Below are positions 24,903-36,875 of a DNA stretch of 64,000 nucleotides, one piece after another. The stretch's first letter is position 1; every line of letters starts with the position of its first letter. The notes below the pieces were generated by a model, which worked only from the letters and a program-made list of their open reading frames with translations, ran no database searches and was not told the DNA's origin. The stretch comes from Afipia clevelandensis ATCC 49720 (GTDB lineage Bacteria; Pseudomonadota; Alphaproteobacteria; Rhizobiales; Xanthobacteraceae), in contig NZ_KB375281.1 in assembly GCF_000336555.1 (NCBI RefSeq), positions 4,146,155-4,210,154 on the forward strand, read 5' to 3'. The translations under genes were made by a program, and so were the position numbers.

Positions 24903-25316
24903 ATGACGATGCGAGACGAGGCGACTGTGCTGCAAAGCAAGGCCACGCCGACGCAGAAGCGCTTTGACAGCGTAGCGCTGCTGTCGGTTGGCGGCATCCT
25001 GGCGGCACTTGGCGCCGCGACCTGTTGCGTGGTCCCGTTCGCTTTGTTCCTCGCCGGCGTCAGCGGTACATGGATCGGCAATTTGACCGCGCTCAAGGCC
25101 TATCAGCCATTGTTTATCGGGCTCGCGGTGGCATGCCTCGGCGGCGGTTACTATGCCGTCTACCGCAAACCGAAGGCGGCCGATTGCGTCGAAGGCTCCT
25201 ACTGCGCCAGCCTGTCATCTCGTCGGACCGCCAAGGTCGGGCTGTGGATCGCGACGCTCCTGATCATCATCGCCGTGGGCTTCCCCCACATTGCTCGCCT
25301 TTTCCTCGACACCTAA
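24903..25316 (+). CDS. merT: Mercuric ion transporter MerT
   Basis: 137 residues, three predicted membrane helices. The first helix carries the Cys41-Cys42 pair (GAATCCVVPFAL) that accepts Hg(II) from MerP, and the cytosolic loop carries the second pair, Cys95 and Cys101 (ADCVEGSYC), that hands it on to MerA. ATG 24903 is used here; ATG 24909 is possible. First gene of the mer operon. Confidence 0.93.
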   Translation: MTMRDEATVLQSKATPTQKRFDSVALLSVGGILAALGAATCCVVPFALFLAGVSGTWIGNLTALKAYQPLFIGLAVACLGGGYYAVYRKPKAADCVEGSYCASLSSRRTAKVGLWIATLLIIIAVGFPHIARLFLDT

Positions 25317-25333
25317 CAACAAGGAGACTTGCC

Positions 25334-25621
25334 ATGAAAATTCTGCCTCTTGTCGCCCTGACCGTTGCCCTGTTCTCCTACGGTGCAGCTTCAGCCACCG
25401 AGCGAACCGTGACGATCAATGTCGCCAACGCTACCTGTGAACTCTGCGGCCCGATCGTGAAACGCTCTCTCACCCGCATATCCGGCGTGCTCGATGTTCA
25501 GATATCGGAGGCAGATGGGGCTGCGATTGCAAAGGTTCGGTTTGAGGATAGCCGGACGGACGTCTCGACGCTCATTTCGGCGACCACCAACGCTGGCTAT
25601 CCCTCGCGCATCGTGCAGTAA
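25334..25621 (+). CDS. merP: Periplasmic mercury-binding protein MerP
   Basis: 95 residues: a signal peptide (about 1-21) and an HMA fold. The usual GMTCxxC is ATCELC (Cys35 and Cys38), so the two Hg ligands are kept while the Gly-Met are not. AAGGAG stands upstream. It captures Hg(II) in the periplasm and passes it to MerT, encoded 17 bases upstream. Confidence 0.92.
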   Translation: MKILPLVALTVALFSYGAASATERTVTINVANATCELCGPIVKRSLTRISGVLDVQISEADGAAIAKVRFEDSRTDVSTLISATTNAGYPSRIVQ

Positions 25622-25633
25622 GGCCGCGTCGGT

Positions 25634-25735
25634 ATGACCGTCGCAAAACTCATCATCATCGGGGCAGGGTGTACTCCGGTTGTCTGCTGTGCGGCCCTGA
25701 CTCCTGCAACGTGGATGCGAACACACGAAAGTTGA
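25634..25735 (+). CDS. Possible 33-residue Cys-rich peptide between merP and merA
   Basis: ATG 25634 to TGA 25733-25735, ending four bases before the merA ATG. It is short and hydrophobic with three cysteines (IIIGAGCTPVVCCAALTP). merF or merC often occupies this place in mer operons, and this could be a truncated relic of one, or chance. No ribosome site stands out. Confidence 0.25.
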   Translation: MTVAKLIIIGAGCTPVVCCAALTPATWMRTHES

Positions 25736-25739
25736 AACC

Positions 25740-27179
25740 ATGAACGACTGCTGTACCCCGAGCACGAGTGGCGGCAGCAGCCGCTACGACCTTGTTGTCG
25801 TCGGCGCCGGCTCCGCCGGCTTCTCGGCCGCGATCACTGCCGCCGAGCAGGGCGCGCGCGTTGCGCTCGTCGGGCACGGCACGATTGGCGGCACCTGCGT
25901 CAACATTGGCTGCGTGCCGTCGAAAACGCTGATCCGAGCTACAGAGACGGTGCACCACGCTAACGCCGCCCCGGCTCGGTTCGACGGCATCGAAAGCAGC
26001 GCGCGCGTGGTCGATTGGGCCGCACAGATCGCCCAGAAGGACACGCTAGTCGCCAGCCTTCGTCAGGCGAAGTACGCCGATCTTTTGCCCGAATACAACA
26101 ACATAGCCTACCGTGAAGGTCGGGCGCGCCTCGTCGAGGGAGGCGTCGACGTGGACGGTCAGCGCCTCGTCTCGGACCGCATCATCATTGCGACGGGCGC
26201 GCGGCCTGCGCTACCCACCATCCCAGGCATCGCAGAGGTTGCGCCTCTCGACAGCACGACGGCGTTGTCGCTGAAGGAGCTACCGCGCTCGATGATCGTG
26301 CTCGGCGGCGGCTACATTGGAGCTGAACTCGCCCAAACCTTCGCACGCGCGGGCGTCGCGGTGACGCTCGTCTTTCGCAGCCGGCTTTTGCCGGAAAGCG
26401 AACCTGAGATCGGGCAGGCGCTCGCGGGCTATCTGGCCGACGAGGGGATCACAATTGTGGGTGGCTTGGCCTACGATTTCGTCCGCAAAACTGAGAATGG
26501 CGGCGTCGCACTCACGATCACTCGCAACGGCGATCCAGAGATATTGACCGGCGAACGGATTCTCGTGGCGACAGGGCGCACCCCGAATACTGAAACTCTC
26601 GGGCTTCCGGAGGTGGGCGTCGCGCAGACATCGTCTGGCGCGATCGTCATCGACGACCGCATGCGCACTTCGAAGGCCGGCATCTATGCCGCCGGCGACG
26701 TGACGGGCAGGGACCAGTTCGTCTACATGGCGGCTTATGGCGCAAAGCTTGCGACCAAGAACGCGCTGAATAGCAACGGCCTGCGCTATGACAACACCAC
26801 CATGCCCGCCATTGTCTTCACGGACCCTCAGGTGGCGAGTGTCGGTCTGACGGAATCGCAAGCTCGTGCCGCCGGGTACGCCGTGCGGACTTCGGTGCTC
26901 TCGCTCGACAACGTGCCGCGTGCGCTCGCAGCGCGCGACACACGGGGGCTTATCAAGCTCATCGCCGATGGGGTAACGCGCAAGCTGCTCGGAGCGCATA
27001 TTCTTGCGCCAGAGGGTGCCGATAGCATCCAGACTGCGGCCTTGGCCATCCGCTGCGGTCTCACGATTGATGATCTGTCGGAGACGATCTTCCCCTATCT
27101 CACGACCGTCGAGGGCCTGAAGCTCGCGGCACAGACGTTCGACAGAGACGTGAAGAAACTGTCCTGCTGCGCCGGGTAA
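25740..27179 (+). CDS. merA: Mercuric reductase MerA (short form lacking the N-terminal HMA domain)
   Basis: 479-residue FAD/NAD(P)H disulfide oxidoreductase reducing Hg(II) to Hg(0) in the cytosol. It shows the FAD fold (DLVVVGAGSAGFSAA), the redox pair Cys53 and Cys58 (GGTCVNIGCVPSK), the NADPH fold (VLGGGYIGAE), the second FAD motif (GIYAAGDVTG) and the C-terminal Cys pair Cys476-Cys477 (LSCCAG) that delivers Hg(II) to the other subunit. The N-terminal NmerA metal-binding domain is missing, as in many alphaproteobacterial enzymes; a CC pair at residues 4-5 remains. No merB is present, so organomercurial resistance is not predicted. Confidence 0.96.
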   Translation: MNDCCTPSTSGGSSRYDLVVVGAGSAGFSAAITAAEQGARVALVGHGTIGGTCVNIGCVPSKTLIRATETVHHANAAPARFDGIESSARVVDWAAQIAQKDTLVASLRQAKYADLLPEYNNIAYREGRARLVEGGVDVDGQRLVSDRIIIATGARPALPTIPGIAEVAPLDSTTALSLKELPRSMIVLGGGYIGAELAQTFARAGVAVTLVFRSRLLPESEPEIGQALAGYLADEGITIVGGLAYDFVRKTENGGVALTITRNGDPEILTGERILVATGRTPNTETLGLPEVGVAQTSSGAIVIDDRMRTSKAGIYAAGDVTGRDQFVYMAAYGAKLATKNALNSNGLRYDNTTMPAIVFTDPQVASVGLTESQARAAGYAVRTSVLSLDNVPRALAARDTRGLIKLIADGVTRKLLGAHILAPEGADSIQTAALAIRCGLTIDDLSETIFPYLTTVEGLKLAAQTFDRDVKKLSCCAG

Positions 27180-27375: not shown

Positions 27376-27902
27376 TCAGGTTGCGGGATTTGACGGGGTC
27401 CAATTCCAGGGCAGCAGGTCGTCAAGTCGGTTCATAGGATGACCGTTGGACATGTGAATAAGCACGTCTTTGAGGTGGGCGAAGGGCTCGACGTCGTTAA
27501 GCTTTGCCGTGGTGATAAGGGAGCGGACGGTCGCCCAGCGCGCAGCCCCGCGATCGAATCCGGCGAACAGGTGTTTTTTTGCGGCCGAGTGTGATGGGGC
27601 GGATGGCGCGTTCCACGGTGTTGGTGTCGAGTTCGATGCGCCCGTCATCGAGGAACCGGCTGAGGTCGCTCCAGCGGGTCAGTGCGTAGCGGATCGCATC
27701 GGCAAGCCCGCCGCGCGGCGGGATGTGGGTCAGCTGCGTCTCGAGCCAGGCCCTCATCGCAGCAACCAGCGGCAACGAGCGAACTTGTCGTACGTCCCGC
27801 CGTGCGTCGGCGGTCTTGCCTCGGATCGTTGCCTCGATCGCATAGAGCTCGGCGATGCAGCGTCTCTACATCGGCCGGCAGGGCGGTGAGATCGATGTTC
27901 AT
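27376..27902 (-). pseudogene. tnpC: IS66 transposase (tnpC) remnant, internally deleted and frameshifted
   Basis: Three pieces of one IS66 transposase in two or three frames. The N-terminus MNIDLTALPADVETLHR begins at 27902. It jumps directly to the late catalytic region (IAELYAIEATIRGK, then RFLDDGRIELDTNTVERAIRPITLGRK), and a frameshift near 27,590 leads into the C-terminal segment (SLITTAKLNDVEPFAHL...LLPWNW) ending at 27376. Most of the coding region between is missing. A GTAAGCGTCC sequence at about 27348-27357 resembles an IS66 terminal repeat. Non-functional. Confidence 0.88.
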
Positions 27903-27970
27903 GACGATAGAGTGTAGCCGACTCGTGTCCGCTTCCGCCGCTCCGAATGCACCATTCAATCCGTCTCAGA

Positions 27971-28288
27971 TCATCCGGCCAGGGCCGGTCGCCAGCGCTG
28001 CACGATCGGCGCTCCCGACCACGAGGAGGGATAAGCCCCCGGACTAACGAGAGGACTAAGCGGCGGACTAAAGGGAGGACTTAAGTTGCGCCGCCGGTAA
28101 AGCAGCTTGCGTTCCGGAGGCTGCGGCTCAGCCTCAAAAATCGCGCGTCAGTTCTCGAAGGCCTTGCGCGGAATACCCTCCGCCTCGCAATACTGCCGTT
28201 GGTTCAAGTCACTACGCTTCCACGCCTCATGGTGTGCCCGCCAGAAAGTCTCGCCCTGACGTCTCCACACTCCGTTCTTGCTCGCCAT
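27971..28288 (-). pseudogene. IS66 accessory gene (tnpA) remnant with in-frame stop
   Basis: From ATG 28288 the product begins with the family's typical FWRAHHEAWKRSDLNQRQYC. A TGA at 28148-28150 replaces the Trp codon expected in the ...ENWRA segment. Past it the same frame continues with the expected EAEPQPPERKLLYRR and a Pro/Ser region to 27971. tnpB is absent, so a deletion joined tnpA to the tnpC stub. The element is dead. Confidence 0.8.
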
Positions 28289-28384: not shown

Positions 28385-28830
28385 TTGTCCGCGCGAGGTT
28401 TCCCTGTTCTTCGAAATGTGTTCCCTGTTAATTTTGTAGGGAATTATCGCCAAAAGCGCTGCGCCGCAGTGGTTTCTCGCCTCCAAGCTCCTCTGGGGAG
28501 GCCAAAATCGCGAATTTCCCTGTAAAATTCCCTGTTACCAGGGAATTCGCTTAGAGACGGGCGCGATCAGCACTGCGTCGCCAGCCATCCAGTGCGGATT
28601 TCAGAGAATTTCTTTCTTTTGTGCGAGAATGCCCCGCCATTGGCGGGCTTTTTCAAAATGCTGAGTCTCTACAAAGACCGGAATCGAACCGTCACCTTCC
28701 CAAATTGGCCGACATTCTCTGACCAATCATTGAAGAATTCCCGTTTTCAAGAGTCGCGCGGAAGAGACCGGAGAATAAAACCACTGCGCGATGGAGCATG
28801 CAGTTGAATCGAACTTTCTCCGCTTACGTT
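28385..28830. repeat. Noncoding repeat, copy 1 (left border of the 28.4-36.9 kb cassette)
   Basis: The stretch between the IS66 remnant and the acyltransferase gene has no convincing gene. It contains several TTCCCTGTTA / CAGGGAATT units near 28400-28550, then a segment that aligns with 36,540-36,875: GCGAA-TTTCC, CCAG-x-GCGGATTT, a GC-rich terminator hairpin, AATTCCCGTTTTC and GAGACC-x-GAGAATAA...CCACTGCGCG occur in the same order in both. The copies are diverged but collinear and in the same orientation. Elements of this look occur widely in Bradyrhizobium-type genomes as far as I recall. Confidence 0.65.
28633..28653 (+). terminator. Intrinsic terminator inside repeat copy 1
   Basis: CCCGCCA (28633-28639) pairs with TGGCGGG (28641-28647), followed by CTTTTT. 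A comparable hairpin sits at the same place in repeat copy 2. Confidence 0.65.
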
Positions 28831-28966
28831 TGGTCAGCCATTAACATCAACTGATCCACTTCATCGTACAGGTGGGGCGCAACGTCGGCAGTTTGTGACG
28901 CGATTTGAGAGCAATGTCTGTCTTCTATTTGTCTGGCGACGGTATCTTGGCTGACTCGTCTCACCT

Positions 28967-30106
28967 TCACGTCGATAAACCAATTTCATAGATGCGATGT
29001 GTGGTCGATATCGTCCCGCCAATGCGTTCGATGGTGCGCCGCAGACCCATGTTGTCCTCGAGAACCCAGCCTAGTTCGACCTGACGAATCTTGTGATTGA
29101 TCGATCGGTGCACGAGTTCACCGATCATCATGGCGGGCAGGCCGAGGTTTGAGGGATTTCCTCGCTCCGATTGAGCAACTCCCAGCAGGATGACACGGCA
29201 ACTGGAATAAGCGCGGCGCCTAGCGCGCCAGAGAAACCTGATCCAGTTGAATGGCAGCAGACGGCCGTCCATATCGGCTACCATCTCCTGGATGTTGGGA
29301 ATCCACAATGCGACGGCGATAGGCATGCCGTCGCGTTCGACAATGACCGCCATGTCTTGCTGGATGATCGCTTTGAGCGAGTCCGCCATCGCCAGGGATT
29401 CGGCATCGGATATCGGTGTGAAGCCCCAGTTGCTAGACCATGCATCGTTATAGATGGTTGTGATGATCCCGATGTCGCGGCGCAGGTGCCGCAGATCGAG
29501 GCTGCGGACCTTGAGATGGCCGGTCGTTTTTGCTGTCAAGGCCCGATGGCGTTTCAAGTCGGATGGTCCGAGCCGCGCCAGGTCGAGGCTATAAGACACG
29601 ACATCCTTGACCGGTTCGAGGCTCGAGGCCTCGACATGCGCTGCGAGATAGGGCGGATGCCATGGTGTCATCACCATCGGATTGTGTGATTGTCCGCCTA
29701 TCTGAAGACCGGTCTCGCCGTTCGACGACAGGTTGAACGGCCCGCGCATCCGATCCATTCCGCGCGCCTGGAGCCATCGTCCCGCTTCGTCAAGCAAGGT
29801 GCTCGTCACGCGCGGATCGTCGATCACGTCCAGGCATCCGAACAAGCCGGTTTTGAGCGGCCACTGCGCCGGTGCATCACCTAATATCTGCGCTGATATC
29901 CGCCCTACGGCTTTTCCCTTGAGCCGTGCGAGAAAAAACACGGCCTCATTGTTTTGAAAAAAAGGTGACTTTTTCGGCGATAATGTCTGTTTGCGCTCCA
30001 TGTCGAGTGGAGCGGAGTAGCCCTGCATGCCGCGATAAAGCAGTCGTGGAAGGCGCAGAAAGTCCTGCAGATCTTTTCGGGATGCAACGGGTGTGACGGC
30101 GATCAT
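28967..30106 (-). CDS. GNAT-superfamily N-acyltransferase-like protein of about 380 residues
   Basis: 379 residues of a widespread long GNAT-fold family that begins with RxxLxxFLRLPRLLYRG and contains NPFF-like (KSPFFQNNEAVFFLA) and RGPFNLSSNGETGL motifs, followed by a second half with an NNxGLRR-like end (LEDNMGLRRTIERIGG). Bacterial ceramide synthases reported in Caulobacter are GNAT-type acyltransferases, and to my knowledge proteins of this size class include them; this is not proof for this one. It lies 121 bases downstream of the Omp25 gene on the same strand, with a hairpin between them. The neighbouring SDR and alpha-oxoamine synthase make a lipid N-acylation role attractive, as inference. 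Confidence 0.75.
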   Translation of the reverse strand: MIAVTPVASRKDLQDFLRLPRLLYRGMQGYSAPLDMERKQTLSPKKSPFFQNNEAVFFLARLKGKAVGRISAQILGDAPAQWPLKTGLFGCLDVIDDPRVTSTLLDEAGRWLQARGMDRMRGPFNLSSNGETGLQIGGQSHNPMVMTPWHPPYLAAHVEASSLEPVKDVVSYSLDLARLGPSDLKRHRALTAKTTGHLKVRSLDLRHLRRDIGIITTIYNDAWSSNWGFTPISDAESLAMADSLKAIIQQDMAVIVERDGMPIAVALWIPNIQEMVADMDGRLLPFNWIRFLWRARRRAYSSCRVILLGVAQSERGNPSNLGLPAMMIGELVHRSINHKIRQVELGWVLEDNMGLRRTIERIGGTISTTHRIYEIGLST

Positions 30107-30178
30107 TGCCGTGTCTCGGCTGGAGCGACACGCCGCCGATTCAGTTTCAAGGCGGCCATGATTTCGCTGTTGCTTTCA

Positions 30179-30210
30179 GGCGGCTGAACCGATCTCCCGA
30201 TTCAGCCGCC
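30179..30210 (-). terminator. Perfect 10-bp hairpin between omp25 and the acyltransferase gene
   Basis: GGCGGCTGAA (30179-30188) pairs perfectly with TTCAGCCGCC (30201-30210) across a 12-base loop, 18 bases after the omp25 stop. It lacks a T-run on either strand. It could limit read-through into the acyltransferase gene rather than fully stop it. Confidence 0.5.
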
Positions 30211-30227
30211 CGCAAGAGTGTTCTCCG

Positions 30228-30917
30228 TCAGAACTTGAACTCCAGCGTTCCAACCACGGCGCTGGATTCGAGCCCGTAAGTGACCGGAAGCGGCACGCTG
30301 CAGCAAGCAAACGGATAGGTGGCTTTTTCCGCGACCTGATAGGTATATCGCACGCCCGCGACAAGGTTGTCGGTGATGCCGTAGTTCACACCCGCAACAA
30401 ACTGCCCCAGGGTGTGCTGTTGGGTCTGATACTCGGCGACGCCGGGACCAAAGATCGCGCCGCCCTTGACCTCAGCCGTCCCGATGCCGCCGCCGATATA
30501 AGGTAGCCAGCGGTCGAAAGCGTAGCCCAGGGTGCCGATCGCAGAGACGGCATATTTGACGTCCGCAGTGTAGGAGACGCCGGGAATCAGCGCTGACTGA
30601 ACGGTCTGCTTCTGGAAGGCGACGGGCGCGTTGACCTCAAATCCGAGCACAAGCCGGTTGGCGAACTGATAGCGATAGCCGCCCTGAACGCCGGCGAGAT
30701 ATCCCTTCGGATCAATGACGTCATTGCCATTTCGCGCGAAGGAGGTGCCGGTGACATCGCCCCAGAGATAGCCGACATGGCCGCCGACATAGAAGCCGGT
30801 CCAGTTATAGGCCGAAACCACGGGCATCGGCTTCGCTTTGACATAAAGATCCGCGGCGGCGGCTCCGGACGCGGCAACGGCTGCAATCACGCCAGCCAGA
30901 ACAACTTTTTTGAACAT
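30228..30917 (-). CDS. Omp25/RopB-type outer-membrane beta-barrel protein
   Basis: 229 residues with a signal peptide (MFKKVVLAGVIAAVAASGAAAA) and an eight-stranded barrel of the alphaproteobacterial surface-antigen family (NWTGFYVGGHVGYLWG near the start, YTYQVAEKA and a terminal GTLEFKF ending in Phe, the usual outer-membrane sorting residue). The start at 30917 gives a proper signal peptide; the longer GTG form does not add homology. It is transcribed from a divergent promoter shared with the SDR gene and carries the cassette palindrome 43 bases upstream. Confidence 0.88.
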   Translation of the reverse strand: MFKKVVLAGVIAAVAASGAAAADLYVKAKPMPVVSAYNWTGFYVGGHVGYLWGDVTGTSFARNGNDVIDPKGYLAGVQGGYRYQFANRLVLGFEVNAPVAFQKQTVQSALIPGVSYTADVKYAVSAIGTLGYAFDRWLPYIGGGIGTAEVKGGAIFGPGVAEYQTQQHTLGQFVAGVNYGITDNLVAGVRYTYQVAEKATYPFACCSVPLPVTYGLESSAVVGTLEFKF

Positions 30918-30956
30918 TGAAATTTCCCCAACCACTGAAAACCGGTATCCTTCCTA

Positions 30957-30978
30957 TATAATAGCTCAGTGAGCTATT
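30957..30978. promoter_or_regulatory. Divergent promoter with 19-bp perfect palindrome
   Basis: AATAGCTCAGTGAGCTATT at 30960-30978 is a perfect palindrome about a central G. It overlaps a consensus -10 box TATAAT (30957-30962) for the rightward SDR unit and lies within the leftward omp25 promoter region (TATTAT on the minus strand, 30958-30963). The TAGC...GCTA arms resemble MarR/SlyA-type operators, and a MarR gene ends the cassette. A protein bound here would block both promoters. A second, slightly imperfect copy is at 33153-33169. Confidence 0.7.
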
Positions 30979-31062
30979 ATGTAACTCTTCTGCAACGGTC
31001 ACAGATTTAAATACGTGGCCGGGGCCGTGGTCCGTAACCGCTGGTGGTATTTCGGTAGCTTC

Positions 31063-31911
31063 ATGACCTCTCCTCGCTCCATTCTCATCACCGGCGCCTC
31101 GAGCGGGATTGGCGCAGCGCTTGCTACGGCCTATGCGCGCGAGCAGGTGACGCTCGTGCTGATGGGGCGAAACGAAGAGCGGCTTTCGCGTGTTTCCTCT
31201 GTGTGCCGCGACAAGGGAGCGTGCGTTGTCAAAGCAGTCCATGACATCGCCGACACGGAAGGATTTCTCGATGCACTGTCAGAGCTGGACCGGCACTGGT
31301 GCTTCGATCTCGTGATCTTTAACGCCGCCGTCGGCGATACGAGCGCGCCGCTTCAGCAGACCGAGACGCCGCAACAGATCGTCCGCCTTCTTGATATCAA
31401 TCTTCGCGGTCCGGCGGCTGGCGCCAGCCTGATTGTCGAGCGGATGATCGCGCGCGGTGAAGGGGGCGCAATCGCGATGATCAGTTCGGTCGCGGCCTTT
31501 GTGCCGCTGCCCATGGCGGCAGGTTACGCCGCCTCCAAGGCGGGGTTGAACGCCTTTGCCCTGTCGCTAAACGCGGCGCTTCGCGGACATGGCATCGCCG
31601 TTTCGGTGATATGCCCGGGATATGTCGATACACCCATGAGCGCGCGGCTGAATACGTTCAAGCCGTTCCAGATGAAGCCGGAGGCGGCTGCGGGCGCGAT
31701 TATCGCCTGTATCGCCAGGAAGCAGGTCTTCGCCATTATTCCATTCCAATATGCCGTTGCGTGCTTCGTTCTCAAATTCGTGCCGACGAGACTGGCTGTC
31801 TGGCTGTCGTCGAAGTTCAGTCTGGATGCGAGCCCGTATTTTGCGGCAGGCCAGCCAAAATGCGCAACTGCGGGCACGGATGACTTCTCCGAAAAACTGG
31901 ATATTCGATAA
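31063..31911 (+). CDS. Short-chain dehydrogenase/reductase paired with an alpha-oxoamine synthase
   Basis: 282-residue classical SDR: the cofactor motif TGASSGIG (about 10-17), NAAVG, the catalytic Ser in MISSVAA and the YxxxK motif in GYAASKAGL. The hydrophobic C-terminal third (FQYAVACFVLKFVPTRLAVWLSSKF) suggests membrane association, as in 3-ketosphinganine reductase-like SDRs. ATG 31063 is preferred over an upstream in-frame GTG. Its TAA overlaps the next ATG by one base. It probably reduces the ketone made by the synthase encoded next; the substrate is inferred. Confidence 0.87.
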   Translation: MTSPRSILITGASSGIGAALATAYAREQVTLVLMGRNEERLSRVSSVCRDKGACVVKAVHDIADTEGFLDALSELDRHWCFDLVIFNAAVGDTSAPLQQTETPQQIVRLLDINLRGPAAGASLIVERMIARGEGGAIAMISSVAAFVPLPMAAGYAASKAGLNAFALSLNAALRGHGIAVSVICPGYVDTPMSARLNTFKPFQMKPEAAAGAIIACIARKQVFAIIPFQYAVACFVLKFVPTRLAVWLSSKFSLDASPYFAAGQPKCATAGTDDFSEKLDIR

Positions 31912-33128
31912 TGTCGCGCTCGCTCGTTGATCATGCATTGAGCAGATATCGGCTCGCGGGAGCGAACCTTATTTCGGACCGCGATCCATTCTTTCTGCCG
32001 GTCGATGGCTTTCGTCTGTCCCGCGAGCGGGAAGGCCAATCGGTGGTCAGCTTCGCGCACTACGATTATCTGGGGCTTTCCGCGCACCCCGATGTGGTCA
32101 TGAGCGCACACAAGATGCTGGACAGCCTCGGCCCGTCGGTGTCGGCATCACGCATGGTCGGTGGCGAACGCATGCTGCACGGAGATCTTGAGGAGGAACT
32201 TGCCGCGTTTGTCGGGGCGGAGGCCGCGCTGACGCTGGTCAGCGGCTATTTGACCAACGTCACCTTGCTGGCTCACCTGATGTCGTCGCAGGACCTGATC
32301 CTGTACGATGAACTTTGCCATAACAGCATTGTCGTGGGAACGCGAGCCGCGCGATGCGACTCGCACCCGTTCGCGCATAACGACCTGTCCGATCTTCGCC
32401 GGAAACTCGCCGCTATGCGAGGTCGCTACAAGCGATGCCTGATCGTAGTCGAGGGTCTTTACAGCATGGATGGCGACGTCGCAGATTTGCCTGAGCTTGT
32501 GAATATCAAGAACGAGCACGATTGCTGGCTGATGGTCGATGAGGCTCATTCGATCGGAACGCTTGGAAGCAGTGGCCGGGGGCTTTGCGAACATTTCAAT
32601 GTTGATGTCGGCGATGTCGATCTGATCGTTGGCACGCTGTCCAAGGCGTTTGTCTCATCAGGCGGATTTATTGCTGGACATGGCGCGGTCATCCGGTGGC
32701 TTCGGTACACGTTGCCAGGATTCGTCTTCAGCGTGGGTCTCGCGCCTAGCGTTGCTGCTTCAGCCCTGTCGGCATTGCGTGTGCTGAAGCGCGAGCCCGC
32801 GTTAACAGATATCCTGAGGAAAAAATCCCGACACTTCCTGCGCGAGGCCGAACGGCTTGGTCTCGATACAGGACCAGCCATCGGCATCGGCGTCGTGCCG
32901 ATTTTGATGAAGAGCGAGCAGGCTGTACTGGAGGTGTCTGAATTGCTCAAGCAGGCCGGTTACTATGTTCCGCCCATCGTTAGGATTGGTGTCCCGAAGG
33001 AAAAGCCCCGGCTAAGATTTTTCATTTCGGCGTTGCATGAGGATCGCGATATTTCGCGCTCGCTAGAGACGCTGATAAACAATGCCGCGATGGGTTATGA
33101 TACGGCGGCGCGGAGCGAAGCTGTTTGA
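31911..33128 (+). CDS. Alpha-oxoamine synthase (serine palmitoyltransferase / KBL / CqsA-LqsA superfamily)
   Basis: 405-residue PLP enzyme that condenses an amino acid with an acyl thioester with loss of CO2. Key residues are visible: His137 stacking on PLP (DELCHNS), Asp210 and His213 (VDEAHSIG), and the Schiff-base Lys245 (GTLSKAF). The order and length agree with a complete enzyme. The family cannot be split by eye into BioF, KBL, ALAS, SPT or CqsA/LqsA. The partner SDR argues for a long-chain ketone product, the first step of a sphingoid base or of an alpha-hydroxyketone signal. It is translationally coupled to the SDR and followed by a sensor kinase. Confidence 0.88.
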   Translation: MSRSLVDHALSRYRLAGANLISDRDPFFLPVDGFRLSREREGQSVVSFAHYDYLGLSAHPDVVMSAHKMLDSLGPSVSASRMVGGERMLHGDLEEELAAFVGAEAALTLVSGYLTNVTLLAHLMSSQDLILYDELCHNSIVVGTRAARCDSHPFAHNDLSDLRRKLAAMRGRYKRCLIVVEGLYSMDGDVADLPELVNIKNEHDCWLMVDEAHSIGTLGSSGRGLCEHFNVDVGDVDLIVGTLSKAFVSSGGFIAGHGAVIRWLRYTLPGFVFSVGLAPSVAASALSALRVLKREPALTDILRKKSRHFLREAERLGLDTGPAIGIGVVPILMKSEQAVLEVSELLKQAGYYVPPIVRIGVPKEKPRLRFFISALHEDRDISRSLETLINNAAMGYDTAARSEAV

Positions 33129-33152
33129 GGACAAACTCACTCGATCCATTCA

Positions 33153-33169
33153 TTAGCTCAGTGAGCAAA
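33153..33169. promoter_or_regulatory. Second copy of the cassette palindrome, before the sensor kinase
   Basis: TTAGCTCAGTGAGCAAA repeats the core GCTCA-G-TGAGC of the 30960-30978 palindrome with one mismatched pair in the arms. It lies 13 bases before the likely kinase ATG (33183). The same regulator should therefore act on the kinase/receiver pair and on the divergent enzyme/porin promoter. Confidence 0.62.
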
Positions 33170-33182
33170 AATTGATTTGCCA

Positions 33183-35525
33183 ATGATTTCCCGTTTTCCG
33201 TGGCCCATGCAATCAAGACGGAAGAAGCCGGGCTGGATTGCCCGGGAGTATCCGGCTTGGCGGAGGCTGGCCTCGACGTTTCTTCTTGCCGCGTTCGCCG
33301 CTGTACTTTTTCAAGCCGTCATCATCCGAAATGCCGCGGCGGTCACCTATGAACTCGGTCCTGTCGCGGATCACTTGCTCGACCTGACCGGACAACTCTC
33401 AGTGGCCGACGTGATAACTCCAGCCATTGCGGCGAGGTTCAAAGCCGCCAATGGCACTCCTGCCAACTATGGGCCGCAGCCAAACAGCGCTGCGGCTCTC
33501 TGGCTAAGGATACCTATTCCGACCCTGACTGGCTCTGACGCGCAGGATTGGGTCATGTCCGTTGTAGAGACGCGGATTCGGCGGGTGGATCTGTTCGTGC
33601 CGTCCGAAGGCAAGAGCTTCATCTGGAGCGGGGAGCAGCATGCCAACCCGTCGGTATCCACGACGCGGTACCCGGCTATCGTGGTGCCGGCAAATATCAT
33701 TTCCGGACGCACGCTTTTCCTGCGTATCGACACAGCATCCTCCATGCGGGCGATGGTCAGGCTGCAAAACGATATGGATTTTTCAGTCTCCTATGGAACG
33801 CAGAGTTTCCTGTTCGGCGTGGCGTCGGGGCTTCTCGGCATTCTTGCGCTCTATCTCTTCGCCAACGGGATCGCGACGTCAGACCGCACGACGTTGATTT
33901 TGTCGGCCTTCACGCTGACCTATCTCGTTTATATCCTGACCCATCAGGCATTTCTGGAATCGCATCTGATGCCTGGCGCCTTAGGCGTATCGCGCGTTCT
34001 TTCGATATTCTCCAGCACGCTGCTGTTTGCGTGGTGGCTATTCTTCACAGACAGCTATCTGAGGGTCGAGAGCCATCGCCCGGTGCTGTCGCGGATCGCC
34101 AGAGGTGTCGCGTTTTTTTGTCTCCTGTTTGCGATCTCAACTGCGATTGCGGTGCTATTCGAGTGGCGGTTCCTCAGACGGTTTACGTCCATCGTCGGTA
34201 TCGGTTCATTGCTATTTGGAATCGGGATCGCCGCTGCGATGTTCAAACTCGAGCGCAAGCGTACGACCATCTTCCTGCTGTGCTGGGCAGTCGGTCTTGT
34301 CGCCGGGATCATCCGTATGCTGCACGATGTGGTGCCCCCGATTGGCAGCAATGCCTATGCGCTTAACGCCACCTATGTGGCGACATGTTTTTGTTTCGCA
34401 GTTTTCGGAATCATTACGTCAGTTGAAGCGCATCGGCGAGAGCGCGCTTTGAGGGCTTCCGTCGAAGCAACAACCGACCGTCTCAGGGATTTCGCTCACA
34501 GCGCCTCGGACAGCTTCTGGGAAACAGATGATAGCGGATGCGTTACTTTCGCAACCGGACCGGCGGCTGACCGTGCCGGCATCCGTCCGGGGCGTTCTTT
34601 TCTTGAGATCGTGCAAGCGGGACAGCCGGATGCACATCTTAAGCCGGATGGTTCCTCCAGTGTCGCGAGCGGAGCGCCGCTGCGCCACATTCTCCACCTG
34701 ACTGGACAGCACGGCGGTCCTGGCAGTTACATCGACCTGCGCGGTTCAGCGCGCTTTACGTCCGATGGAGCCCTGTTGGGATACAGGGGCATCGCGACGG
34801 ACGTCACGCGGGACATTCTCGACCAGCGGCGGCAGACCCAGCAGCAAAAACTCGCGGCCATGGGCCAGCTCGCCGGAGGCGTTGCGCACGAAATCAACAA
34901 TCTGCTCCATCCCATCATCAATCTGTCCCGCCGCGTGGCCGAACAGACAGAGCAGGACGATGAAAAGCGCCGCTGGCTTGATGTGGTTGTGGACTCGGGA
35001 AAGCGCGCGGCCGAAATCGTGAGAGCGTTGCTGAACAATGTGCGGCCGGCGTCCGAGACAGCGGCAACGGCGCCGCTGTTCGAGAGCGTCACACGCGCGC
35101 TTGATTCCGTTCGGAATGTTTTGCCGCGCGGGATTCGGCTGGATCTGACGGGCGATGGAACGCCTGGCCCTGTATTGCCCGTGCATGAGGTTTTTCAGGT
35201 TGTCGTCAATCTGGTTGCGAACGCGGTTCACGCCTCGCAAGGGGGCGGGAGGGTCAGTCTGGATGTGCGGGCCAGCCGATACGAAGGATTGAACGCCACG
35301 GTACTCACCGTCACCGACGAGGGAGAGGGCATGGACGCGGAAACGCTGCAACAGGCGCTCGATCCGTTCTTTACCACCAGGAAAGCCAACGAAGGCACCG
35401 GCCTTGGCCTCTATGTGGTTTACGGGCTGGTTCAGAGCTGGAATGCGGTGCTTGATATCCAATCGGAACCCCGGCAGGGAACGAGGGTGACGATTACCTT
35501 TCGCTCGGGGGAGGGGCAGACGTGA
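33183..35525 (+). CDS. Sensor histidine kinase with 7TMR-DISM receptor, PAS-like and kinase domains
   Basis: About 780 residues. After a signal anchor (about 25-50), a periplasmic 7TMR-DISMED2-like domain (about 55-215) is followed by seven predicted membrane helices (about 235-425), a PAS-like region (about 455-560), a dimerisation domain with the phospho-His in GGVAHEINNLL, and an ATPase domain with NLVANAVHAS, TDEGEGMD and GTGLGLYVVYG. HEINN-type kinases often act through separate receivers, and the next gene is one, overlapping by four bases. DISM receptors sense small extracellular ligands. ATG 33183 or 33207 may be the start. Confidence 0.88.
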   Translation: MISRFPWPMQSRRKKPGWIAREYPAWRRLASTFLLAAFAAVLFQAVIIRNAAAVTYELGPVADHLLDLTGQLSVADVITPAIAARFKAANGTPANYGPQPNSAAALWLRIPIPTLTGSDAQDWVMSVVETRIRRVDLFVPSEGKSFIWSGEQHANPSVSTTRYPAIVVPANIISGRTLFLRIDTASSMRAMVRLQNDMDFSVSYGTQSFLFGVASGLLGILALYLFANGIATSDRTTLILSAFTLTYLVYILTHQAFLESHLMPGALGVSRVLSIFSSTLLFAWWLFFTDSYLRVESHRPVLSRIARGVAFFCLLFAISTAIAVLFEWRFLRRFTSIVGIGSLLFGIGIAAAMFKLERKRTTIFLLCWAVGLVAGIIRMLHDVVPPIGSNAYALNATYVATCFCFAVFGIITSVEAHRRERALRASVEATTDRLRDFAHSASDSFWETDDSGCVTFATGPAADRAGIRPGRSFLEIVQAGQPDAHLKPDGSSSVASGAPLRHILHLTGQHGGPGSYIDLRGSARFTSDGALLGYRGIATDVTRDILDQRRQTQQQKLAAMGQLAGGVAHEINNLLHPIINLSRRVAEQTEQDDEKRRWLDVVVDSGKRAAEIVRALLNNVRPASETAATAPLFESVTRALDSVRNVLPRGIRLDLTGDGTPGPVLPVHEVFQVVVNLVANAVHASQGGGRVSLDVRASRYEGLNATVLTVTDEGEGMDAETLQQALDPFFTTRKANEGTGLGLYVVYGLVQSWNAVLDIQSEPRQGTRVTITFRSGEGQT

Positions 35526-35899
35526 AAAGTGGACCACTGAGTATTCTTGTTGTCGACGATGTTCCTGCCATGCGGGAGTCCATCGGTGCCGCGTTGAGTG
35601 CGGCCGGGCATCGGCCCTCCTATGCCGAGAATGGCAAGGAGGCGCTTGAGCGCATCATTGCCGGCTCATTCGATGCGGTCGTCACCGATCTTTGGATGCC
35701 TGAAATGGACGGACTCGGTCTTATCAAGCGGATAAGGCAGGAGCAGATGTCGCTCCGGGTCTTTGCAATTACCGGCGGCGGGCCTCGCCTGACATTGGAG
35801 GCTGCGACGTCGATTGCCGAAATCTGGGGAGCCGAAAAGGTTTTTCTAAAGCCCTTCGATGAGTCGCTTCTAGTCGAGGCTTTGATGGAGGTGAGCTGA
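35522..35899 (+). CDS. Single-domain response regulator (receiver only)
   Basis: 125 residues forming one receiver domain: acidic pair Asp12-Asp13 (VVDD), phospho-acceptor Asp56 (VVTDLWMP), the switch Thr in FAITGGG and Lys in VFLKPFD. No output domain is present, so it signals by protein contact or as a phosphate shuttle. GTG start at 35522 overlaps the kinase stop, which fixes it as the partner. Confidence 0.9.
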   Translation: MKSGPLSILVVDDVPAMRESIGAALSAAGHRPSYAENGKEALERIIAGSFDAVVTDLWMPEMDGLGLIKRIRQEQMSLRVFAITGGGPRLTLEAATSIAEIWGAEKVFLKPFDESLLVEALMEVS

Positions 35900-35905
35900 G
35901 GTCCG

Positions 35906-36370
35906 TTATTCGGCCGCCTGTGTCGGCTCATGCTTTTGCGCCTGAACAGCAGCGATGATGGCTTCACATGCCATCGCCAGACTTTCAGCCTGTTCCGGTG
36001 GCATTGCTTCGATTGCCCGCACAACCACAAGCAATGGGTCTGCCTTGAGCAGAGCGCGGCCCATGCTTGTCAGTTCCACGATCTCCGAGCGCCCGCGTCC
36101 GGCGGACCCGGCTTTACGCAGCAAACCCTTTTCGATCAGGGTTCGCACCGAACGAGAAACCGGCCCGAACGCCAGCCCCTGAAAGCGAGCCAGTCCCATC
36201 GCGGTGTTATACGGCGCGGCGGCGTCACGAAAGTAGCGAAGCGCCGTCCATTGTGCCGGAAAAAGACCACCATCGTGACCGATCGAGTGCATTGCACGGG
36301 CGACTTGATCGAGCAAACGCGCAACAGGGGCTGATGCTGGCCGCTTCAGCTTCGCAGGTGCCATTGCCAT
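35906..36370 (-). CDS. MarR-family transcriptional regulator of the cassette
   Basis: 154 residues with a winged helix (FPAQWTALRYFRDAAAPYNTAMGLARFQGLAFGPVSRSVRTLIEKGLL), a wing (KAGSAGRGRSEIVELTSMG) and flanking dimerisation helices. It converges on the receiver gene, six bases away. MarR proteins bind palindromes of the size found at 30960-30978 and 33153-33169, so it is the obvious candidate to bind them; this is inference from location. Its own upstream region (36371-36480) has a TCAAGCAAT/ATTGTTGA near-palindrome rather than the cassette palindrome. Confidence 0.85.
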   Translation of the reverse strand: MAMAPAKLKRPASAPVARLLDQVARAMHSIGHDGGLFPAQWTALRYFRDAAAPYNTAMGLARFQGLAFGPVSRSVRTLIEKGLLRKAGSAGRGRSEIVELTSMGRALLKADPLLVVVRAIEAMPPEQAESLAMACEAIIAAVQAQKHEPTQAAE

Positions 36371-36539
36371 ACCTTGCTACCGAGAAGAGAATCTATTGTG
36401 AGGGAGCAGATGATGCAGGGCCTTGGCAACTCTCGATGGGTCATATCAAGCAATATTGTTGACGTTGCGGATGGTCCTGCCAACACACAATAGCGTGGAC
36501 TTGGCGGGCGGGTGCACTTGTTTCCCCGGCATTCGCTGA

Positions 36540-36875
36540 CATTTTCTCTGCCCTCGAAGTCTCTTAAAAAATGCGAAATTTCCTTTTGAAATCAAAGGGA
36601 GGATTTAATTTGGGAATGTGCTGGCTCGATCTCTTCCAAGGCAGCCAACCAGTGTGGATTTTGGAGAGTATCCTTCCTGCGGTGGAGAAAAGCCCGCAAA
36701 ATGCGGGCTTCTTTAATGTCGAAAAGTCTCTCGGGTGCCCATTTTCGAATTTTCGCGGCGAGAATTCCCAAAAGTCTCTTGGTATCTACTGGAAAATTCC
36801 CGTTTTCCAGACTCTCGCTCCGGAGACCAGAGAATAACTCCACTGCGCGGTAGGGTGTCAGTGTGAATCGCGTCA
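36540..36875. repeat. Noncoding repeat, copy 2 (right border of the cassette)
   Basis: Collinear, same-orientation diverged copy of the 28,385-28,830 element: GCGAAATTTCC, CCAGTGTGGATTTTGGAGAG, an AGCCCGCA/TGCGGGCT hairpin, AATTCCCGTTTTC, GGAGACCAGAGAATAA and CCACTGCGCG appear in the same order. There is no credible gene between 36,371 and 36,967. Confidence 0.62.
36691..36712 (+). terminator. Intrinsic terminator inside repeat copy 2
   Basis: AGCCCGCA (36691-36698) pairs with TGCGGGCT (36702-36709) around an AAA loop, followed by TCTTT. Equivalent in place to the terminator in copy 1. Confidence 0.62.

What the first reader, a model, noticed from the sequence alone, without database searches (positions are those of the whole stretch)
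28967..36370. Candidate undescribed lipid or signalling cassette: acyltransferase, porin, SDR, alpha-oxoamine synthase, 7TM kinase, lone receiver, MarR
Seen: six of the seven genes lie in two divergent units sharing one promoter region, with SDR-synthase and kinase-receiver pairs coupled by overlapping start/stop codons. The enzyme set (oxoamine synthase, SDR, GNAT-fold acyltransferase) is the one used for bacterial ceramide-type lipids. Known: CqsA/LqsA-type synthases also make alpha-hydroxyketone signals and sit beside sensor kinases and receiver proteins. Inference: the cassette makes a long-chain amino-ketone or sphingoid-like product and couples it to its own sensor. I do not know of this exact combination.
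Basis: partly seen in the sequence, partly recalled or inferred. Interest (0 to 1): 0.78.

Follow-up and report, generated by a model that had tools for sequence, protein, structure and literature searches.

The report
Ceramide-type lipid genes with borrowed switch
Three linked genes that look able to build a ceramide-like membrane lipid in an Afipia bacterium share a rare 15-base DNA mark with a neighbouring sensor and regulator set that occurs by itself, with the same mark, in other genera, so the lipid genes seem to have been plugged into a ready-made switch.

Summary
All seven genes are present as described. They are two modules joined in one block, found whole in two other Afipia genomes, each with different flanks.

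Module A is a ceramide-type core: an alpha-oxoamine synthase, an SDR and an acyltransferase of the bacterial ceramide synthase (CC_1154/YghO) family. The synthase is not CqsA/LqsA, BioF, KBL, ALAS or a canonical SPT. It belongs to a separate, strongly supported clade with S. meliloti RkpG; many clade members sit in sphingolipid-type clusters. Module B (7TM kinase, lone receiver, MarR) occurs without the lipid core at ten other loci.

A palindrome, TAGCTCANTGAGCTA, ties them together. It lies in the divergent promoter of the lipid genes and just before the kinase, its only two sites (up to one mismatch) in this genome. Its core recurs at nine of ten module B loci and beside a second Afipia MarR that has no kinase.

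Best reading: MarR represses the lipid genes, and the kinase-receiver pair modulates it. This supports a lipid cassette coupled to signalling, but in the direction signalling-to-lipid; nothing shows the kinase sensing its product. Binding, repression, the product and receiver-MarR contact are inferred, not shown.

The parts
28967..30106 (-). acyltransferase of the bacterial ceramide synthase (bCerS/CC_1154/YghO) family, tandem GNAT fold
   Evidence: HMM of its relatives finds one gene within about 10.5 kb of the SPT in 8 of 9 genomes fetched; 32.8% to E. coli YghO beside an SPT-type operon; fold
30228..30917 (-). small outer-membrane beta-barrel protein (OMP_b-brl); ORF listed from GTG 30935
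   Evidence: PF13505 42.8 bits; dN/dS 0.03-0.04; one of 9 matches in the genome, itself included
30958..30980 (.). operator 1: perfect palindrome ATAATAGCTCA-G-TGAGCTATTAT (15-bp core 30962-30976) between the divergent OMP/acyltransferase and SDR/synthase units; it touches a + strand -10-like box (ends 30962) and lies in the spacer of a - strand promoter-like hit (30985-30958)
31063..31911 (+). classical SDR, presumed 3-keto-sphingoid reductase; ORF listed from GTG 31015
   Evidence: PF00106 137.8 bits; co-located with synthase and acyltransferase in other clusters
31911..33128 (+). PLP-dependent alpha-oxoamine synthase of the RkpG-containing clade
   Evidence: PF00155; no NCBIfam cut-off met; trees; conserved PLP-site residues kept
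33154..33168 (.). operator 2: TAGCTCAGTGAGCAA (1 mismatch), 14 bp before the likely kinase start codon
33183..35525 (+). sensor histidine kinase: 7TMR-DISMED2, 7TMR-DISM_7TM, HisKA, HATPase_c; ORF listed from TTG 33177
35522..35899 (+). lone receiver domain
   Evidence: PF00072 75.5 bits
35906..36370 (-). MarR-like winged-helix regulator, presumed binder of the palindrome
   Evidence: PF12802 25.9 bits, below its cut-off; 11-sequence alignment with invariant core; found in 3 of 101 genomes searched at E <= 1e-20, the three with the block
28731..28811 (+). left copy of an 81-nt imperfect direct repeat outside the block
   Evidence: 73% to 36790-36870
36790..36870 (+). right copy of the flanking repeat

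Best explanation
The block is a pair of ceramide-type lipid units recruited into the regulon of an independent signalling module. Proposed pathway: the synthase condenses a fatty acyl thioester with an amino acid (probably serine) to a 3-keto sphingoid base, the SDR reduces the keto group, and the ceramide-synthase-family acyltransferase N-acylates it, giving a ceramide or dihydroceramide for the envelope. The MarR protein binds TAGCTCANTGAGCTA in the shared divergent promoter and before the kinase gene and represses both. The 7TM kinase and lone receiver sense an envelope condition and change MarR's occupancy, directly or indirectly. Shown: gene families, the two modules, the operator and its placement beside MarR modules. 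Inferred: product, MarR binding and repression, sensing, receiver-MarR contact.
For: Acyltransferase: family HMM hits one gene near the SPT in 8 of 9 genomes fetched, E <= 1.3e-122; same family beside acyl-AMP ligase, epimerase, ACP and SPT-type synthase on an E. coli plasmid. Synthase: clade supported 100/100 and 99.8/100, apart from SPT, CqsA/LqsA, ALAS, KBL, BioF; acyltransferase within 10 kb in 13 of 34 loci not chosen through it, and clade synthase near 4 of 6 acyltransferase-chosen loci; neighbours at other loci include sphingolipid delta-4 desaturase, inositol-1-phosphate synthase, CDP-alcohol transferase, LptF/G. Same divergent acyltransferase / SDR-synthase order on an Acidisoma plasmid without kinase. 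Module B alone at 10 loci. Operator: 2 sites in G000, both in the block; exact core 14 times in 169,327 bp of the 10 module B loci (0.16 expected at equal base use) vs 1 in 1,712,479 bp of 194 other loci, that one being the window's own site; a second MarR in G027 with no kinase nearby also has it.
Against: The reversed-pattern control gave 15 sites over the 20 genomes against 16 for the pattern (4 vs 2 in G001, 3 vs 3 in G027, 0 vs 2 in G000), so genome-wide counts alone are not exceptional; the case rests on placement (13 of 16 sites in the modules or beside MarR or its neighbour genes). Three of nine module genomes have no site at one mismatch. The synthase meets no curated SPT cut-off, and all 37 clade members aligned have Tyr where 36 of 39 other synthases have Asn, so serine use is not assured. 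No dedicated ACP or acyl-ACP synthetase is in the block. The SDR is not a CerR homologue. No operator precedes MarR itself in the window. The operator core is absent from the other 35 lipid-core loci examined. No binding, expression or lipid data exist.
Confidence: 0.62

Rival explanations
1. The cassette makes a secreted alpha-aminoketone or hydroxyketone signal (CqsA/LqsA-like) that its own kinase senses.
For: Synthase next to a kinase and a receiver; general alpha-oxoamine synthase family.
Against: 180.6 bits vs the CqsA/LqsA cut-off of 428; separate from nine CqsA/LqsA proteins in the tree; a ceramide-synthase-family acyltransferase is present; the kinase module exists at 10 loci without the synthase.
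Confidence: 0.06
2. The synthase and SDR are RkpG/RkpH-like and make a lipid anchor or carrier for a surface polysaccharide rather than a free ceramide.
For: S. meliloti RkpG lies in the same clade; FAS/PKS, synthase, SDR and capsule genes; rkp-1 is described as making a lipophilic carrier or anchor (PMC3557214, passage); KpsC-like gene near the Acidisoma core; one mixed locus, L217, has RkpA-like, synthase, SDR and acyltransferase together.
Against: No FAS/PKS or capsule match within 10 kb in the three Afipia genomes; the window synthase is in the half of the clade without RkpG (support of that half only 85.5/72); no acyltransferase match in the S. meliloti locus.
Confidence: 0.17
3. The two modules are neighbours by accident of insertion; MarR controls only the kinase and the OMP, and the lipid genes are merely adjacent.
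For: Module B exists elsewhere without lipid genes; module A elsewhere without module B; the divergent promoter also serves the OMP.
Against: Operator 1 is perfect, lies between the divergent units, overlaps promoter-like hits on both strands (itself only 6 hits vs 3.1 in shuffles) and is kept in all three Afipia genomes although synonymous sites have diverged strongly (pS up to 0.65); the whole block is kept together with unlike flanks.
Confidence: 0.15

Closest known systems
Caulobacter aasR-cerR-acpR-spt operon with separate cerS (PMC11324152, PMC11087976; passages seen)
   Same: Synthase, reductase and N-acyltransferase set; acyltransferase family shared; acyltransferase in a transcription unit apart from the other genes.
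   Different: Window block lacks AasR and AcpR; reductase is a classical SDR, not the NDUFA9-like CerR; synthase is in another clade.
S. meliloti rkp-1 locus, RkpG/RkpH
   Same: Synthase clade; SDR next to synthase.
   Different: RkpA-like FAS/PKS and capsule genes absent from the Afipia block; no ceramide-synthase-family match in the S. meliloti locus; window SDR only 28% to the RkpH-position SDR. The locus names rkpG/rkpH on this record are mine, from gene order.
PfSgaAB sphinganine PKS cluster of Pseudomonas fluorescens MYb115 (PMC12134224; passages and sections 8-9 read)
   Same: An alpha-oxoamine synthase with assayed, almost exclusively serine-specific SPT activity, and a KDSR-like SDR; a PKS-linked synthase from another Pseudomonas lies in the window's clade.
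   Different: Depends on a PKS; PfSgaB itself was not in my trees.
RtrC, a MarR-like factor acting below a two-component ensemble in Caulobacter (PMC9648850; passages seen)
   Same: MarR-like protein, pseudo-palindromic site, functionally downstream of two-component proteins.
   Different: RtrC has over a hundred ChIP peaks; relationship by sequence to this MarR not tested.
LqsA-LqsS-LqsR / CqsA-CqsS (recalled; synthase labels)
   Same: Synthase next to kinase and receiver.
   Different: Synthase not in that clade; acyltransferase, OMP and MarR present.

Membership tests
bacterial ceramide synthase (bCerS/CC_1154/YghO) | sequence homology to the acyltransferase encoded near SPT genes | tested here: met
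   hit in 8 of 9 SPT neighbourhoods (none in G264), E <= 1.3e-122; window protein alone 191-325 bits. CC_1154 itself was not fetched; YghO 32.8%
bacterial ceramide synthase (bCerS/CC_1154/YghO) | N-acylates a sphingoid base | not testable with these tools
   needs enzyme assay
canonical serine palmitoyltransferase | NCBIfam SPT cut-offs (NF047603 670, NF047599 500, NF047600 640 bits) | tested here: not met
   189.5, 270.6, 281.2 bits
canonical serine palmitoyltransferase | groups with SPTs in a tree | tested here: not met
   separate clade
canonical serine palmitoyltransferase | co-occurs with AcpR and AasR genes (PMC9386255, passage) | tested here: not met
   no such gene among the seven ORFs of the block; the rest of the genome was not searched for them
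canonical serine palmitoyltransferase | condenses L-serine with acyl thioester | not testable with these tools
   H137, D210, H213, K245, R369 kept; position 51 Tyr instead of Asn
CqsA/LqsA autoinducer synthase | NF005526 cut-off 428 bits and tree placement | tested here: not met
   180.6 bits
BioF / KBL / ALAS | curated cut-offs and tree placement | tested here: not met
   331.8 vs 426.45, 239.5 vs 493, 229.1 vs 338.55 bits
RkpG-containing synthase clade | tree placement | tested here: met
   99.8/100 support with the S. meliloti synthase of the rkp-type locus
RkpG-containing synthase clade | FAS/PKS partner gene (rkp/sga type) | tested here: not met
   RkpA-like match in 5 of 38 loci, not in the Afipia block
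CerR ceramide reductase | NDUFA9-like / NAD-epimerase homologue | tested here: not met
   window SDR is PF00106 and has no match at E <= 1e-4 in the E. coli locus that carries the epimerase-type gene
kinase-receiver-MarR module (defined here) | gene set and shared operator | tested here: met
   kinase + receiver at 10 of 10 other loci, MarR at 9 of 10; operator core exact at 9 of 10, one mismatch at the tenth
kinase-receiver-MarR module (defined here) | receiver phosphorylation changes MarR binding | not testable with these tools
   none

The most novel reading that the evidence does not exclude
The 7TM kinase, lone receiver and MarR form an undescribed portable three-gene switch whose output is a MarR dimer that the receiver controls by direct contact. 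It is plugged into different, probably envelope-related, neighbour genes in different genera through one 15-bp operator, and in Afipia it has captured ceramide synthesis, so bacterial sphingolipid production is there a regulated envelope response with a dedicated two-site regulon.
Probability: 0.35. Interest if true: 0.78.

Novelty: new variant of a known kind. Interest (0 to 1): 0.62.

Why it matters
Bacterial ceramide enzymes are known, but in an open-licence library I found no paper joining their regulation to a two-component system or a MarR protein (listings only). This locus gives a defined operator, a candidate repressor and a candidate sensor, so the question of when bacteria make sphingolipids becomes directly testable. 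It also points to a second synthase clade that spans rhizobial K-antigen loci and ceramide-type clusters, and to a kinase-receiver-MarR module that recurs in other genera of the order.

Tried and rejected
Signal-synthase reading (CqsA/LqsA): rejected by score and trees. The best HMM score, BioF 331.8 bits, as evidence of biotin synthesis: rejected, since ALAS, KBL and SPT proteins score 315-380 on that model without being BioF. Link of module B to lipid A genes: at two loci (L190, L192) the kinase lies next to a gene with a lipid A acyltransferase homologue (the gene itself was scanned in L190), in L190 followed by ACP- and KAS-like ORFs resembling an acpXL cluster (name recalled), and at L197 the kinase is near a 2713-aa PKS-like ORF; the operators there precede the kinase or MarR, so this stays a hint. 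Structure of the ~430-aa protein beside MarR in other genomes: beta-rich but mean pLDDT 44, not used. Papers: one paper holds 7TMR-DISM, MarR and histidine kinase, by its title on beta-galactosidases (listing); seven hold single-domain response regulator, MarR and sensor kinase (two looked into); two and four hold sphingolipid regulation terms, off topic by title. One search found none. One search gave nothing used.

Mended on re-check: the reversed-pattern control and the mixed locus L217 are now reported; 'independent' and 'unrelated' were removed for the ten module loci, which come from six genomes of two genera plus one plasmid.
Full report
WHAT IS THERE. The window is part of a single-contig 4.4-Mb genome; two records with the same block are titled Afipia sp.. 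Junctions overlap as described. Likely starts lie slightly inside three of the listed ORFs (ATG 30917, 31063, 33183), an inference from the three Afipia sequences.

ONE BLOCK. The block aligns end to end with two other Afipia genomes: window 28948-36661 with L039 (G001, 92% DNA identity) and 28977-36375 with L040 (G027, 79%). Beyond it only short stretches align: about 250 bp to the left with L039, and two of 73 and 59 bp. dN/dS is 0.23 or below for all seven genes in both comparisons. An 81-nt, 73% direct repeat lies outside each end. Of the 28 other genomes of the genus searched with the synthase, these two have it at 95 and 88%; one more (G018) has a 49% relative with an SDR and acyltransferase match but no kinase, receiver, MarR or OMP match nearby. 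In G018 the acyltransferase match runs over two frames, so it may be interrupted there or mis-assembled.

ACYLTRANSFERASE. It has no Pfam or NCBIfam hit and no PDB sequence match at E <= 1. I fetched the surroundings of 9 of the 24 strongest hits for the alphaproteobacterial SPT model; only one of the nine is over that model's cut-off, but all nine group in one 100/100 SPT clade. An HMM of the acyltransferase's relatives finds one gene, within about 10.5 kb of the SPT, in 8 of the 9 (none in G264), E <= 1.3e-122. On an E. coli plasmid the homologue is annotated yghO and stands next to fatty acyl-AMP ligase, NAD-epimerase, ACP, alpha-oxoamine synthase, lptG and lptF (window protein 32.8%), the layout described for Caulobacter (PMC11324152, passages). 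The predicted fold matches tandem GNAT proteins, TM about 0.6-0.7 at 10-15% identity. It is rare in the family: 7 of 198 genomes including this one.

SYNTHASE. No NCBIfam cut-off is met. In an 85-sequence tree it falls in a 100/100 clade apart from canonical SPT, CqsA/LqsA, ALAS, KBL and BioF. A second tree of 51 sequences, with the S. meliloti synthase of the rkp-type locus, a Pseudomonas PKS-linked synthase, an Acidisoma synthase and a Bacteroidota SPT, gives 99.8/100 for the same clade. It is split into a FAS/PKS-linked half with the S. meliloti protein (100/100) and a half with the window (only 85.5/72); the order among the large families is unresolved. Conserved PLP-site residues are kept (their roles are recalled). 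Position 51 is Tyr in 37 of 37 clade members and Asn in 36 of 39 reference synthases of other groups (two SPTs also have Tyr, one His).

NEIGHBOURHOODS. I counted 38 loci with a clade synthase, the three Afipia blocks included; L041, L211 and L213 were dropped as duplicates. The acyltransferase is within 10 kb in 17; four of these loci had been selected through it, so the fair count is 13 of 34. An SDR like the window's is in 14 of 38, inositol-1-phosphate synthase in 11, LptG in 10, a sphingolipid delta-4 desaturase in 5, an RkpA-like FAS/PKS in 5, and kinase, receiver and MarR in 3, all Afipia (domain names). Several loci are cut by contig ends. Conversely, of six acyltransferase loci in other genera of the family, four have a clade synthase nearby (L217, L219, L220, L221); L218 has a 33% synthase, L216 none in 12 kb. 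L217 carries an RkpA-like gene as well, so the two cluster types are not cleanly apart. An Acidisoma plasmid has the same divergent order, acyltransferase against SDR-synthase, with no kinase match. A related cluster type, PfSgaAB, has a synthase with assayed serine-specific SPT activity and a KDSR-like SDR (PMC12134224, sections 8-9 read); whether PfSgaB itself is in this clade I could not test.

SIGNALLING MODULE. A search of 397 genomes of the order with the kinase's sensor half found six besides this genome at E <= 1e-20. Those give nine loci (L190-L198; five genomes of one genus, one of another); with a Microvirga plasmid (L175) that makes ten. All ten have kinase and receiver. Nine have MarR beside the receiver; in L193 the contig goes on for only about 730 bases and no MarR matched. 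None has a synthase or acyltransferase match; L190 has one SDR match at 29%. So kinase, receiver and MarR are a module of their own.

THE OPERATOR. The divergent promoter holds the palindrome ATAATAGCTCAGTGAGCTATTAT. A second copy, TAGCTCAGTGAGCAA, lies 14 bp before the likely kinase start. Both cores are at the same places in the two Afipia relatives. In the window, four sites at up to 3 mismatches compare with 1.2 expected (3 of 100 shuffles reach four), so the loose count alone is weak. Genome-wide at up to one mismatch, G000 and G001 have two sites each, all in the block. G027 has a third, beside a second MarR gene (77-78% identical) with no complete kinase or receiver match in the 15 kb read around it. 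Of nine genomes known to hold the module, six have sites at this threshold; G860, G686 and G886 have none, their module sites having two or three mismatches. Of eleven others, nine have none and two (G028, G959) one each, both inside ORFs. The tool's control, the pattern read backwards, gave 15 sites over the 20 genomes against 16 for the pattern (0 in G000, but 4 in G001 and 3 in G027), so the number of sites is not the argument; their placement is: 13 of the 16 lie in the modules or beside MarR or its usual neighbour gene. By composition about 0.5 per genome is expected.

THE OPERATOR CORE. GCTCANTGAGC occurs exactly 14 times in 169,327 bp of the ten module loci (0.16 expected at equal base use), at 9 of 10 loci. 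Eleven of the 14 lie within about 120 bp before the kinase or between MarR and the gene divergent from it; L197 has one with a mismatch. In 194 other loci (1,712,479 bp, partly overlapping each other; I left out L008-L011, L039, L040, L179-L189 and L222-L244) it occurs once, and that is the window's own site in L061. MarR was found in 3 of 101 genomes, the three Afipia genomes with the block; of five other genomes of the genus, one (G028) has a lone one-mismatch site. MarR is therefore the likely binder: the site lies by MarR even where the kinase is missing, and the receiver has no DNA-binding domain in Pfam. Promoter-like hits on both strands overlap the site, but such hits are only 6 against 3.1 in shuffles; the layout fits repression.

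MECHANISM AND LIMITS. Shown: families, modules, block, operator distribution. Inferred: ceramide-type product, serine as substrate, MarR binding and repression, envelope sensing by the kinase, any effect of the receiver on MarR. The direction supported is signalling to lipid genes. The absence of a dedicated ACP in the block, Tyr at position 51 and the lack of head-group genes in the block leave the exact lipid open.

VERDICT. The enzymes are new members of known kinds. The arrangement, a ceramide-type core captured by a kinase-receiver-MarR module through a shared operator, is a new variant that I did not find in print (open-licence library only, judged mainly from listings).

Noticed in passing
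window 24903-27179: ORFs that look like a mercury operon (merT-, merP- and merA-like) left of the block; names recalled from the sequences, not tested.
   Followed up: no
window 27376-28047: Short overlapping ORFs resembling IS66-type transposase remnants (recalled, not tested) near the left end of the block.
   Followed up: no
window 28731-28811 and 36790-36870: Imperfect 81-nt direct repeat (73%) outside both ends of the block; could mark past insertion or recombination.
   Followed up: partly
L042, L043, L045, L047, L051, L206, L210, L212, L215: Clade synthase clustered with inositol-1-phosphate synthase and, in various combinations, CDP-alcohol transferase, PgpA, CTP transferase, NTP transferase and LptF/G (Stappia, Pseudooceanicola and others): looks like an uncharacterised inositol-sphingolipid cluster.
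   Followed up: partly
L191 13172-14530, L196 4767-6059, L190 4665-5993, L194 12130-13461, L238 897-2189, L249 10287-11507: A ~430-aa protein family (two members scanned, no Pfam or NCBIfam hit) that sits near MarR or the operator in several module genomes and beside the second Afipia MarR; a recurrent candidate target of the module.
   Followed up: partly
L190 and L192: Kinase module directly next to a lipid A acyltransferase gene and, in L190, ACP- and KAS-like ORFs (acpXL-lpxXL-like, name recalled).
   Followed up: partly
L117 1-2556: A sister of the synthase clade (39% to the window protein) at the end of a long ORF (852 aa in the locus, open frame 1938 aa); it resembles the SwfB-type fusion of sponge symbionts (PMC3908369, passage), not tested.
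   Followed up: no
L052 8520-9212 and L012 282-1374 (G018): The acyltransferase match of this Afipia relative runs over two frames; interrupted gene or assembly error, left as it is.
   Followed up: no
L243 1501-1515 (G846): An extra one-mismatch operator site in a module genome, just before an ORF of 383 aa with no match to the genes compared.
   Followed up: no
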